Positions 29-12,300 of a DNA stretch of 64,000 nucleotides are shown here, in pieces (position 1 is the first letter of the stretch; every line of letters starts with the position of its first letter). The stretch comes from Branchiostoma floridae (taxonomy: Eukaryota > Chordata > Leptocardii > Amphioxiformes > Branchiostomatidae), in assembly GCF_000003815.2 (NCBI RefSeq), contig NC_049991.1, positions 3,149,667 to 3,213,666 of the forward strand. The letters are read 5' to 3'. The notes under the pieces were generated by a model. It did no database searches. It had not been told where the DNA came from and saw only the letters and a list, made by a program, of their open reading frames with translations. Position numbers and translations under genes: made by a program.

Positions 29-336
29 CTGTATGAAAAAGTACAGTATCACGAGTGCCACCATCACAGTAAGGAACAAGGGAGTTGCCATGCTGACAAC
101 GATAATGCTGTTCAGGATTTTGAACATATAATAGATCATGTCTCCCAAGATCAGCTCTAATTCAATCGTCATGTCTATGTCCAAAGAGAATCTGTTGAGA
201 ATTCTTCCAACTGGAGTCACTTCGAAGAAAGTCAGCGGTAAGCGTAAGATGTTGTCAAGCATGTCTCTATGGAGACACTTTGAGGCGCGATAAATACCCA
301 TCATAAGTAAAATATCCCCTGCATACATTAGGAGCC
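29..336 (-). CDS. ABCC1: Alternative exon 22H of the MRP gene
   Basis: 308 nt, one codon shorter but with the same phases. Reads [20 protein letters not shown] then [20 protein letters not shown], ending ILYFFIQ. Acceptor ttgctttgcag, donor gtagta. The most divergent copy and the last before the window edge; it could be the ancestral-like 3' copy or one of more beyond. Confidence 0.93.
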
Positions 337-3300
337 CTGCAAAGCAATAACAGCTTGGTTATAATATGATCAGTGTGTATGCCTTTAACCTCTGGAAGTC
401 TAAGGGCACCTCTGCACATGGACAAGACCATACGAGCTATCGCAATGATGTTATGGTGACCCATTGGCAGGCAGAAAGCAAATGGAAGACAATTAATTTA
501 CATACAAATTTGTAATTTGATCTGCTAATTTACAAATTGAACGTAGACATCAACTAAGTAATCTGCTGACATCCTGGTAGACTCCAGTCGTAGAATGCCC
601 TGGATGTAAACAAAAACAGCAATTGCTTGCATGGGGAGGGGGGCTGTGAGGAGACTCGTATGTACTGCTATTTCTTGGAGATGCATGAAAAACAATACAG
701 TCAGTCTGGCATGAAGAAAGAGAGCAAGAACAATTAAAATCCTATCTGTAAGATGAATCTCAGAGCATCAGTACACTGTTTATGATTACTTTCAGAAAAG
801 GAACTCTAAATTGTGCAGTACATAACTACAAAGTATAGTGTTTGCCCTGTATGAACATACATGTACGGGGCAAATGACTGTTGCACTCAGTGACAACAGT
901 ACTAGTACATGTTGTAATCCCAACGATCAACAACACAGCTCAAGATATGAGGCTGGACCCTACATGATGCAGCTTTAGACATTTGTATGTCAGCTATGGC
1001 AAGTTTGATTAAAACAACTTTAGCTATTCCATAAATTTTTTTCAAGCACTTAAATCATGACTACTGAAAGTCTGAAACTGTGGGCAGAGATACCATAAAT
1101 TTTAAAGGAGGTACGAGACAATAGTGAGTACTAGTACTTGACTAAAAGTGATCCTTTAAAAAAATTAAAAACAGGTCTGAAAGGGGACAACTACTACAAA
1201 GCACAACATTGCATGTGAAAAGTTGACTTTTAAGATCAACTGAACCTGCCACAGATTTCAAACTATTCTGTATAATACATTAGATAGTGGCATAAGACTA
1301 ACTCCAGGGTTGAAACTGTCTATATGTAATCAGCTCTCTGCGTAAAGATGGACTCAAGTATAGTGACCTGTTACGCTAAAAATGCACTTAGTCTAGCTAG
1401 AACCCAGTGTTGAGCTTACTGGATGCTTAGTACTGTGTTCTCCACAGCTGTGGACCCACAGCCTTCGACCAATCAGGAGGCTGACACAGGCACACAATCC
1501 TTCCCACAGGGCTACAGTCATGGAATGTTGACTAATTCAGAGATCTTAATATCTCTCCATACTGAATTTCTGTACTGTCTACAGGACATACACAAGGATA
1601 ATGATAAGCATTTTGTCAGTGATCTACATGTAAAAGTCTTATGTTACAAATGGGCAAGAACAATGGCTGTTAGTGTGCAAAGTGTTAAGGACAGGGACGA
1701 AGTCCACAAATAAAAATGGATGAAAGTACATTAGAGAGCAAATGGTGTTGATTGTCACTTATTAGCATAGCCAATCAGAAAAAGCTTCAAATGCATGCAA
1801 AGCAGCATTCTACTCGAATAAAGGCAGCTTGCACTTTGAACTGAAAATGTGTTAGGTCAAAAGTGAAAGCCCCTAACTTGTAATCAGTCTACACCGCGCT
1901 TGATACCAATTGTCCAGACATGTTCTCAGGGGCCTTCAACTTTGACATAATACCCACAATTCATCACACTGTACATACTCATGTTCAAACAGTGTAGCAG
2001 ATTATTTCAGCATCTTAACATCAACTCAGAGTCATGTGCCAATGTATCATCAGTTATCCTGAGGTATAATGTACTTCGGGTTTAATCTTCAGAAGCCTTC
2101 TCTTAATTGTTTATTTTTTTTTGCATGTGGCAGTATTATGGCACCCGGTGGAATTACATGTATGAGAGTTGATGTTAACAAGTCTACAGGAAGCTTGTAT
2201 ATAATGGTATTTGCTCATTTGATATGCAAATAAAAAAAGGTGTGGCCTGCAGGTGGTACCTCCAGGTGAGTGTCGTGTTACCTGGACAAAAAAGTAGAGA
2301 AGTCCGAGCGGCAGTATGACAGTGGCAAAGATAGGTGTACTCATCACTATCACAATTATGGCGCTCAGAATTTTAGTCAAACAGTGGACGATGCTGGACA
2401 TCCTGGCGGGAACGACAGAATCCACCGTGTTTATGTCTTGGGAAAATCGGTTGAGGATTCGTCCGACAGGAGTGGAATCAAAGAACATCATAGGAAGGCG
2501 CAACACGTTGGCAACCAAGATGCGGTGCATGTGCATCGCTCCTATAAAGCCTCCCACCGCTACAGCAAAGGCTGTGAGAACCACAGCTACACCTATGGAA
2601 GATAGCAAGGAGAGGGAAGCTGAGTGTGTTAATGGTATTATGCAGAGTTATCTCTTATTATTAATAGCACCTTTAAAATGCTCCAGCCACTGCCTTCAAA
2701 GACAAGAACATACTTTGAGTGAGAGGTCTGGGATAAAATCTTATAAGATGTTAGATGTTTCGATGATGAAGAAGAGGACAGAAACTTTTCTGTATATAGT
2801 TGAAATACTTTTTTGCTGAAAATCTTATACATGTAGTACATCATTCATTGCCAAATTTCAATAGTTGATTTCACCTAATTTTGTTGGAGCCTTGAAAAAG
2901 AAACTTTAAGACATACTATAATAGGTAATTAGATGACCAAGGGAAAATCAACATAACAGAAAAAGAGAAGTTGTGTGGCGCAAATTGCGGGGTACAGTGG
3001 ACACCAACTAATTGCATCACTGCTATTGGCATAAGTCTGGGATTTGCATAGGATTCTGAAAACCCAAACCATTTGCCATTCACTCCATTGTAAATACAAT
3101 GGTATAATCGCATCATCTATTATGGCATAAATCGGACATTCGGGTAAAATATCGTCAGGTCAATCGCATACTGACCCGTAAATATGTGATAGAAAACAAG
3201 AAAAAAAGTCGAAAATGAACTATCAGCGGCCTTTACAAATGCATTCGATCGGCAAAACCGTCAAAATTACCGCTGAAATGGACAAATAACGCTGGTACGC

Positions 3301-9300: not shown

Positions 9301-12300
9301 TTATGAATACACATGTAAGCACCAGATTAGTACTTAGTATTAGTATTAGTATTAGAACTAGCAGGGACATGCAGCAACTGCTTTGATGACAGAGAGCAGC
9401 ACCTAGAGAAATACTGCGGGGCCTGAAACAGAGGTTAGAGATTGACAGAAACCAGAACTGGACCATTTTGGTTGTTGTGATTTGGCATTGCACTCAGGCA
9501 TATTCTGTGCCTGAATGAAGACTGTTTGAGTTTGGTGAGTGTGGTGACATGTGCTGCAATCATGTTGTGACTGACTCTATGCATATTCTGTACCTGAATG
9601 AAGAAATACAGTAAGATGCAGGGCACCACCACTACGAGGATCAGGGGTGTGCTGTAGGACATGACGACGATAGTGCTGAGTGTGCTCAAGAATGTGCTCA
9701 TGAACGCTCTCATGCACATGGGGACTATCTGGTCCACCGTGTAAATGTCCTTGGAGAATCGGTTCAGAACGCGGCCGAGCGGCGTGGTGTCAAAGAATGC
9801 CATTGGGAGATGGAAGACATTGTTGATCAAGCTAGCATGCAAGCTCGTAGAGGCATACAGGGCTCCAGTAGCAGCAACAAAACTGGACAGCATCACAACT
9901 AGACCTGTGCAGACAAAATATCACAAATAAAGCATTCTATAATACATAACTAGCATCTGCACTATAGATAATTATAAGGAACGTTGTATGTTCCAGAATA
10001 GGCACAGCAACTAGATCACAGGAAAGGCACCATCCAGTAAGATATTGAACGACCTGAAAGACTGTAAATTAGAAGAATCATAGGAGAAATAACAGGAGAA
10101 GTGAGAAGACTGCTTGGGTGTGGTGAAGAGTCTGCAACCATGTTGTGACCTGCTCTATGCACACTGTGTACCTGGATGAAGAGATACAGAAGAATGCTGG
10201 GCACCACTGCCACAAGGATCAGGGGAGTGCTGTACGTCATGACGATGATGGTACTGAGGGTGCTCAGGAACGTGTACAGAAACATTTGCATGCACATGGG
10301 AATTATCTGGTCCACGGTGTATATGTCCCTGGAAAAGCGGTTCAGGACGCGACCGAGAGGAGTGGTATCAAAGAACGCCATGGGCAGGTGCAAAATGTTG
10401 TTCATCAGACCAGCATGCAAAGTGGTGGAGGCGAACAATGCTCCAATTGCAAGGGCAAAACTGGAAAACATCGAAAACAGACCTGCGGCCAAACATGCAT
10501 GTATGGTCTTTAGTGAAGAGCCATGAAAAGAACCTAGACTGTATCCCAGGGGAAGTAAACAACAACTAGCAAATGAAGACAATACTAAACAATCACTAGT
10601 TTAACAATCTCTTCACAAGTTCTGCATTTCATGCAGCAATTCTTTCCTTTTAGTTAATACAAAAACATAAACAAACTTTTGAATATTGAATATTAATTTC
10701 ATATCTTATTGACCAAGGACATAAATGTATATAGCAAAATAATAATACCATAAACATCTATACAATGAACATACATGTACATGATGTATATTATACATGT
10801 TCAATGAATCAAGAATTTCAACGTCACCTTGCGCAACTCCTAGAGCACCGTACACCCCGAGTCGGAGATCCCTCTTGGCGATGTCCTGGGTACCATTGAT
10901 GGGTTGATCGTTGCTCCACTCACTCAGCCATATGTTGGAGTAGATGGAAGCTGCGTTCTGAGCGCAGTACAGCAGGCAGATGATGACGGACAGGGTGATG
11001 CCAACCGATCTTAGGTACTCGACAAACACCGAGGCTTTCACCTGTAGATCCAGAAAAATGATTCAAACTTTGTCAGAGCAGAGGGTTTTGTTTATTCAGT
11101 ATTCACATGACGATTGTACATCTTTTGAATAATAACAAAACATGGCATATAGACTGTCACAACTAATATCTACATGTACAAATATTCACTTTCAGAAAAA
11201 ATGTAACTATTATCATTATCATTATTACCATTACTTTTCCGTATCTTTTTCCATATCTGTATCTGATAGTGCATAGTCGATAGAACCACAAATTGGTGTA
11301 ACACACCATCTTCTCAGGCAGCAGTTGGTTATATAATAATTACACTGATCGACCTGTTATACTTTTGCACAACTAGCTGCAAGCATTGTTTAAAACTATT
11401 GAAGGTGCTCCAATTGTGACGAGTTCCACTCTACAATAGCTCTAGGGAATGACATTTTTTAACACCATCAATTCTTGGTTCATAACTCTGATGGTTGAAT
11501 GTATTACTTTTTTTGTTATTTTCTTATGGAAAGACTCCTAAAAGTTAGATACGTTGCATAACGCACCCTGCCTGTTTCTGCAACCTCCTTCTGTATAAGC
11601 TTGTCTCCCTCCTCTTTCTTCTGAGGCAGCTGACACTTCTGCTCGTGAGAAAGGACACGTTTCAGCGGGATGGGCTTCGCGATGCCGTCAAGCTTGCCCG
11701 TGAGTCCGTCTGGCGATCCCTCGTGACTGCGGTGTAAGCTGCGCTGGCTGCCTTTCTCTGATAATGACATGTCGCTTCTCATGCTCGTTGTACGTACGCG
11801 GCTGTCACGACTCATTTGTCTGTCAAATGAGGAACACAATAGAGGATAATACAGGAATACAAAGGGGTAATAAGTAACAAAATGGACATTGAATATGATA
11901 TTAACATACATTATACGAGGGGCGCGCAATTAGTAATGGTCCTGACCCATTTCCCATAGCAGGAGATTAATGAAACTTGGCACAGTTATTAGTCTTTCTC
12001 TTCATAGGAATCACCCAGAGTTATGCATTTCTCCCATCGTTTGATGCAGCTCTGGACACCGATTTTGTAGGACACCCCAGGTTGGTCCTCCAACTGATGC
12101 CTCATCAATGGCACAAGAGGGACGACCAGGTCTGGGAGCTGTTTCCACAGACTTCCAGCCACGTTTGAATTCAGGATGCCAGCGTTTTACAAGGTCATAT
12201 GATGGGGCATCATCACCATAAGTTTCATTTATTTCATCAAAAGTCTTCTTTGGTGTGCGTCCTTTCAAATACAAAAACCGGATCACTGCGCGACACTCAA

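What the first reader, a model, noticed from the sequence alone, without database searches (positions are those of the whole stretch)
29..10482. Eight tandem, intact, mutually exclusive versions of one TMD2 exon in an MRP transporter gene
Seen: eight open exons with GT-AG borders on the same strand (10482-10172, 9904-9594, 9210-8900, 7946-7636, 6164-5854, 5683-5373, 2592-2282, 336-29) all encode the same segment, around LGRxLNRF and DxxTxDxxxP. Known: this part of MRP1 carries TM13 to TM15 and the coupling region facing the NBDs, and TMD2 helices line the substrate path. From memory, the Drosophila MRP gene also has variant copies of internal exons, one set of seven. Inference: one gene makes at least eight transporters of different specificity; the arrangement may have arisen independently in this lineage.
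Basis: partly seen in the sequence, partly recalled or inferred. Interest (0 to 1): 0.93.

Follow-up and report, generated by a model that had tools for sequence, protein, structure and literature searches.

The report
Alternative exon array in MRP transporter
One lancelet-like animal gene for a cell-membrane export pump carries at least eleven interchangeable versions of a single exon, and its reading frame allows only one of them per messenger, a larger example of a swap already known in other animals.

Summary
The array runs past the window edge with three more intact copies, so gene A has at least 11. A 1,599-N gap inside the array and two decayed copies mean the true number may differ. 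The exon is the MRP/ABCC segment around TM13-TM15. Exon 21 ends in phase 1 and exon 23 starts in phase 0. Skipping, or joining two copies, breaks the frame, and all 11 copies have a stop in the frame entered after another copy. One copy per working mRNA is therefore inferred from sequence; no transcripts were available. Eight of nine close pairs show purifying selection (dN/dS 0.09-0.29); c8-c9 do not (0.68). Two tandem sister genes have one exon 22 each; synonymous divergence puts the deep copies before that gene duplication. Four runs looking for docking/selector RNA pairing gave no support. Exon arrays in MRP genes, arising independently in several phyla, are already in print; I recall that an amphioxus case is among them. 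The specificity claim is plausible but unproven: one of 14 known leukotriene-cavity residues lies in this exon.

The parts
10828..11041 (-). Constant exon 21 (214 nt), starts in phase 0 and ends in phase 1; donor at 10827
   Evidence: DNA search with 10828-11036 found three places, genes A, B1 and B2
10172..10482 (-). Exon 22 copy c1, 311 nt
9594..9904 (-). Exon 22 copy c2, 311 nt
8900..9210 (-). Exon 22 copy c3, 311 nt
8234..8314 (-). Relic of a c2/c3-like copy (3' part only, decayed)
7636..7946 (-). Exon 22 copy c4, 311 nt
5854..6164 (-). Exon 22 copy c5, 311 nt
5373..5683 (-). Exon 22 copy c6, 311 nt
2282..2592 (-). Exon 22 copy c7, 311 nt
29..336 (-). Exon 22 copy c8, 308 nt (one codon shorter). 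The array continues beyond the window: c9 -1984..-2294, c10 -3659..-3969, c11 -6043..-6353, constant exon 23 from -8724

Best explanation
This is one MRP-type (ABCC1/2/3-like) transporter gene in which exon 22, coding for TM13, the following cytoplasmic loop, TM14 and TM15, exists in at least 11 intact tandem versions; one version is spliced between constant exons 21 and 23 in each mRNA. Shown: 11 intact copies with GT-AG borders, equal phase and equal length (one 3 nt shorter), constant exons on both sides, and a reading frame that tolerates exactly one copy. Inferred: that the splicing machinery picks one copy, with NMD (nonsense-mediated decay) removing errors; that RNA structure or splicing factors set the choice; and that isoforms differ in substrate handling through TM13/TM14 changes while the rest of the pocket and the NBDs stay fixed.
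For: Eight window copies, 11 in all. Exon 21 ends in phase 1, each copy starts with two bases completing a glycine codon, and exon 23 starts in phase 0. In the frame entered after another copy, all 11 copies have a stop (8, 3); skipping runs into a stop within exon 23. Of 9 close pairs within the array, 8 have an excess of synonymous change, Fisher p 7.1e-4 or lower, dN/dS 0.09-0.29. In a neutral simulation of four copies, 31-43% stay open at 0.125 substitutions per site but only 4-16% at 0.3-0.5, indels not counted. Two decayed relics exist. MRP genes of other animals have exon arrays with mutually exclusive use (PMC4588896, PMC6071210, PMC7434440 passages). Among 103 columns residue 1092 is tied for most variable (with 1036); 1089 ranks 10th and 1093 16th.
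Against: No transcript data. The c8-c9 pair is not significantly constrained (dN/dS 0.68, p 0.11), and c8 lost a codon and the aspartate at 1084, so c8 may be decaying or divergent. No docking site found. Helical clustering of variability is not significant: TM14 p 0.48, TM13 p 0.36 (columns 1-21) or 0.056 (columns 1-29). One of 14 known cavity residues is in the exon.
Confidence: 0.9

Rival explanations
1. Most copies are silent: one or two (for example c11, shared with the sister genes) are used and the rest are exon duplicates on the way to loss.
For: c11 is the type kept by B1 and B2 (dS c11-B1 0.25, as in the constant exons); two relics exist; c8-c9 show no significant constraint.
Against: dN/dS 0.09-0.29 in the c1-c4, c5-c6 and c10-c11 pairs; splice borders and phase kept in 11 of 11 copies; at 0.3-0.5 substitutions per site neutral copies would mostly carry stops.
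Confidence: 0.08
2. The copies belong to several tandem genes, or to an assembly artefact that merged haplotypes.
For: Two sister MRP genes follow on the same strand and there is a 1,599-N gap in the array.
Against: No constant MRP exon was seen between the copies outside the gap; exon 21 was found at three places, one per gene; copies differ by 11-65% in protein, far beyond haplotypes.
Confidence: 0.02
3. A claim about control, compatible with the main one: choice is set by competing intron RNA pairings (one docking site, one selector per copy), as described for insect MRP.
For: Reported for insect MRP1 with the docking site downstream of the cluster (PMC6071210 passages). I recall the same being reported for Branchiostoma belcheri by Yue et al. 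2017, which is not held. After the donors of c1-c3 the introns are more alike than synonymous sites (c1-c3 66% against 43%).
Against: Intron 0: 27 of 40 shuffles reach the observed score, 38 of 40 on the weakest-link score. Intron 11: 1 of 12 shuffles, 5 of 12 on the weakest link; 7 of 10 natural stretches score as high or higher (these have more G+C than intron 11, which favours them). Copy-proximal version: 24 to 39 of 45 controls (c8 had only 28 nt). The intron excess holds in 3 of 6 pairs of c1-c4.
Confidence: 0.45

Closest known systems
Tandem exon arrays of metazoan MRP genes (Yue et al. 2017, RNA Biol 14:1399; not held, known here through passages of PMC6071210 and PMC7434440)
   Same: Same gene family, tandem duplicated internal exons, mutually exclusive choice, independent origins in several phyla
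   Different: At least 11 copies here. Whether that paper covers this species is not verified; I recall it names early chordates and B. belcheri
Drosophila MRP exon cluster 2 (eight exons, PMC4588896 passages)
   Same: Many interchangeable exons in one MRP gene
   Different: Fly use is shown by full-length cDNA reads (all but one of the eight cluster-2 exons seen). The fly gene has a second cluster of two; no second cluster was found in gene A. PMC9741552 says fly and worm events are unrelated but coincide in one region of the structure; the passage does not say whether that is the exon 22 region
Sea urchin ABCC1 alternative splicing (Gokirmak et al. 2016; title seen in reference lists only)
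   Same: Recalled: exon 22, in a deuterostome, with functional difference between variants
   Different: Recalled: fewer variants; function assayed there, not here
Dscam1 exon clusters with docking and selector sequences
   Same: Large tandem exon array, one exon per mRNA
   Different: No docking or selector boxes demonstrated here

Membership tests
MRP/ABCC transporter gene | TMD and NBD exons of the ABCC type | tested here: met
   PF00664 at all 11 copies, PF00005 on an NBD exon; best solved relatives of c4 and c11 are ABCC2, then ABCC3 and MRP1
Cluster of mutually exclusive exons | Tandem homologous exons of equal length and phase between constant exons | tested here: met
   11 of 11 copies, 10 of 311 nt and one of 308 nt; flanking exons 21 and 23
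Cluster of mutually exclusive exons | Frame broken by skipping or double inclusion | tested here: met
   Phases 1 and 0; stops in all 11 copies in the second-copy frame and in exon 23 after skipping
Cluster of mutually exclusive exons | Transcripts with exactly one copy each | not testable with these tools
   No RNA data; the exon 21 search found no retrocopy that could show a past junction
MXE cluster controlled by competing RNA pairing | One docking site complementary to a selector at every copy | tested here: inconclusive
   No signal over controls in intron 0 or intron 11; one species only, and part of intron 8 is N
MXE by steric hindrance or U2/U12 incompatibility | Introns too short to splice, or mixed intron classes | tested here: not met
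   Shortest intron in the array 170 nt; exon borders GT-AG at all 11 copies; branch sites not examined

The most novel reading that the evidence does not exclude
The exon array is older than the gene duplications around it. Gene A and its two tandem sisters, and possibly the distant paralogue, descend from a gene that already carried several exon 22 types; the sisters each collapsed to a single copy of the type next to exon 23, while gene A kept and grew the array. Single-exon MRP genes in this genome would then be derived, and gene duplication and exon duplication would have traded places at one locus.
Probability: 0.45. Interest if true: 0.45.

Novelty: new member of a known kind. Interest (0 to 1): 0.36.

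Why it matters
An 11-way swap of TM13-TM15 in an otherwise fixed transporter is a natural experiment on which residues tune MRP substrate choice, probably in a chordate close to the vertebrates, which instead have several MRP genes. The neighbouring single-exon sister genes make it possible to test exon duplication against gene duplication at one locus. As a phenomenon it extends, rather than opens, a known story.

Tried and rejected
Separate genes: no constant exons seen between copies outside the N gap (one search's output was cut in the middle). Docking site in intron 0: 27 of 40 shuffles as good. Docking site in intron 11: 1 of 12 shuffles as good, but 7 of 10 natural stretches of the same length score as high or higher, so dropped; the best duplexes were looked at and showed me no common selector. 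Copy-proximal boxes: 24 to 39 of 45 controls as good. Helical face of variability: not significant. Retrocopy of spliced mRNA: exon 21 found only in genes A, B1 and B2. Second variable cluster: 27 constant blocks were searched against gene A, one of them (26560-26403) in a wrong frame, so 26 count; only NBD1-NBD2 cross matches and a minisatellite appeared. The constant-exon dS had that block too; without it the values are 0.26 (B1, 18 of 26 blocks), 0.27 (B2, 23 of 26) and 1.19 (P2, 19 of 26). Species check through the GFP family: nothing rang in the genome or in the control genomes, so uninformative. The tree of 16 rows has 4 of 13 inner branches well supported and fixes no root. Residue 1089 as an anthracycline determinant is recalled only; the listing and the passage gave nothing on it.

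Papers: passages only of PMC4588896, PMC6071210, PMC7434440, PMC9741552, PMC8267652, PMC11711199, PMC10353158, PMC7203140, PMC10844203, PMC8042237, PMC9013439, PMC6027157; reference-list entries only of PMC6209159 and PMC10131483; one irrelevant passage of PMC12609814. Yue 2017 and Gokirmak 2016 were not held; what I say of their content beyond the citing papers is recalled. A description of this array was looked for (1 of 1 listed; 7 of 7; 20 of 1,071; 20 of 57) and not seen in those listings; capped lists cannot show absence.

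Full report
Where it is. The window is C13:3149667-3213666 of a 513,431,437-base genome in 431 contigs. The size suits Branchiostoma floridae as I recall it, but this is inference; my one attempt at a species check was uninformative. Gene A is an MRP-type ABC transporter on the minus strand. Two sister genes lie downstream on the same strand, B1 (about C13:3,103-3,126 kb) and B2 (about 3,054-3,086 kb), and a more distant paralogue, P2, lies at about 9.73-9.75 Mb.

The observation. 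All 8 listed exons are present as described: AG before, GT after, one open frame. Searching the fetched 164 kb with the 8 peptides gave 13 places at E 1e-3 or better: 8 in the window, 3 more in gene A, and one each in B1 and B2. The three extra copies are intact with GT-AG borders at window coordinates -1984..-2294, -3659..-3969 and -6043..-6353. So 11 of 11 copies are intact, 10 of 311 nt and one of 308 nt, and each is also a PF00664 match in the genome-wide search. A 1,599-N gap lies between c8 and c9, so 11 is a minimum. Two relics were found: 8314-8234, a c2/c3-like tail, and pieces at -1733..-1876, a c11-like copy with stops, next to the gap.

What it encodes. c4 matches ABCC2 residues 1037-1138 and MRP1 from about 1033; c11 matches ABCC2, ABCC3 and MRP1. 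With the 1531-residue MRP1 chain, residue number equals column plus 1027. The helix limits (TM13 to TM15) are recalled.

Why one copy per mRNA. Exon 21 (11041-10828, 214 nt) ends one base into a codon, every copy begins with two bases that complete a glycine codon, and exon 23 begins on a codon. Each copy has length 3n+2. Two copies in series shift the frame, and all 11 copies have a stop in that frame (8, 3). Skipping puts a stop in exon 23. The 12 introns from exon 21 to exon 23 run from 170 nt upward and the copies' borders are GT-AG, so steric hindrance and mixed intron classes do not explain the choice.

Selection. Of 9 close pairs within the array, 8 have a significant excess of synonymous change (p 7.1e-4 or lower); c8-c9 do not (p 0.11). 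dN/dS is 0.09-0.29 for the eight and 0.68 for c8-c9. c8 lacks one codon and the aspartate at 1084 that the other 10 keep.

Age. Constant exons give dS 0.25-0.26 for A-B1, 0.27 for A-B2 and 1.19 for A-P2. c11-B1 is 0.25, so c11 is the counterpart of the single exon of B1; c11-B2 is higher, 0.46; c10-c11 is 0.60. All 46 pairs between the five groups c1-4, c5-6, c7, c8-9 and c10-11 have pS 0.65-0.84, far above the 0.22-0.23 of constant exons A-B1 and A-B2. Read plainly, the groups are older than the A-B1-B2 duplications, and the sisters lost the other types. The two youngest pairs, c5-c6 (0.26) and c8-c9 (0.31), are about as old as those duplications. For P2 the case is weaker: constant exons A-P2 have pS 0.60 and c11-P2 0.62, but c10-P2 is 0.81 although c10 and c11 are close kin, so values near saturation are noisy. 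Against loss, no relic of other types was found in B1 or B2, so the loss would have been clean. Gene conversion or differing codon use could mislead. The tree puts B1 and B2 near c10-c11 but leaves deep forks open.

Function. Among the 103 columns, 15 are invariant in all 11 copies, including GR, NRF and D at columns 43-52. Residue 1092 is tied with 1036 as most variable; 1089 ranks 10th, 1100 14th and 1093 16th. In the cavity table of PMC8267652 human M1093 (bovine M1092) is the one TM14 residue among 14; PMC11711199 and PMC10353158 name M1092 as a contact of the lipid tail. The copies carry M, A, M, S, S, P, S, D, D, M, M there. Motifs that I recognise from memory as the TM16-TM17 pocket stretches, RWLALRLEF and LNWMVRM, are in constant exons. 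So a swap would retune one side of the pocket and leave the anion site fixed. Against a simple reading, variability does not follow a helical face significantly (TM14 p 0.48; TM13 p 0.36 or 0.056 by limits chosen), and PMC7203140 counts an MRP1-to-MRP2 chimera of TM14-TM15 plus loop among its poorly or non-expressed constructs.

Mechanism of choice. Competing pairings are documented for insect MRP (PMC6071210; PMC6027157). Four runs here gave no support: 27 of 40 shuffles match intron 0; 1 of 12 matches intron 11; 7 of 10 natural stretches score as high or higher than intron 11 (with more G+C than intron 11); 24-39 of 45 controls match in the copy-proximal version. A possible lead is the 120 nt after the donor in c1-c4: identity exceeds that of synonymous sites in 3 of 6 pairs (c1-c2 60 against 42%, c1-c3 66 against 43%, c2-c3 76 against 60%), equals it in c1-c4 (51%) and falls below in c2-c4 and c3-c4.

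Known context. PMC6071210 states that tandem exon arrays in metazoan MRP genes arose by independent duplications in different phyla, citing Yue et al. 2017. PMC7434440 says the same of helminths, annelids and molluscs. PMC9741552 notes that fly and worm events are unrelated but coincide in one region of the structure. Fly MRP has clusters of two and eight; full-length cDNA reads gave nine isoforms (PMC4588896). I recall that Yue et al. name early chordates and B. belcheri, and that Gokirmak et al. 2016 assayed alternative exon 22 of sea urchin MRP1; neither is held. The finding is therefore a large, well-preserved member of a known kind.

Noticed in passing
L010:6182-6743 (gene A, about window -12923 to -13484): An 80-bp tandem repeat, 7 copies at 96%, duplicates the last 23 codons of an NBD2 exon (6 extra matches) and, by its consensus, the donor; similar repeats at the same exon in B2 and B1. 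May offer several alternative donors.
   Followed up: partly
40595-45421: Minisatellite of 49-bp unit, 99 copies at 86%, with several + strand ORFs inside.
   Followed up: no
56145-56573: ORF on the minus strand with a Peptidase_M54 match, E 5.7e-8.
   Followed up: no
46309-47565: 418-aa minus-strand ORF with many HTGEKPY linkers, a C2H2 zinc-finger array by recalled motif.
   Followed up: no
8409-8646: 43-nt inverted repeat arms (72% complementary), 152 nt apart, inside the c3-c4 intron, like a small transposon.
   Followed up: no
29-336 and window -1984 to -2294: c8-c9 pair has dN/dS 0.68; c8 lacks one codon and the aspartate at 1084.
   Followed up: partly
10052-10171, 9474-9593, 8780-8899: Intron block after the donors of c1-c3 is more alike than synonymous sites in those three pairs; possible splicing element.
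   Followed up: partly
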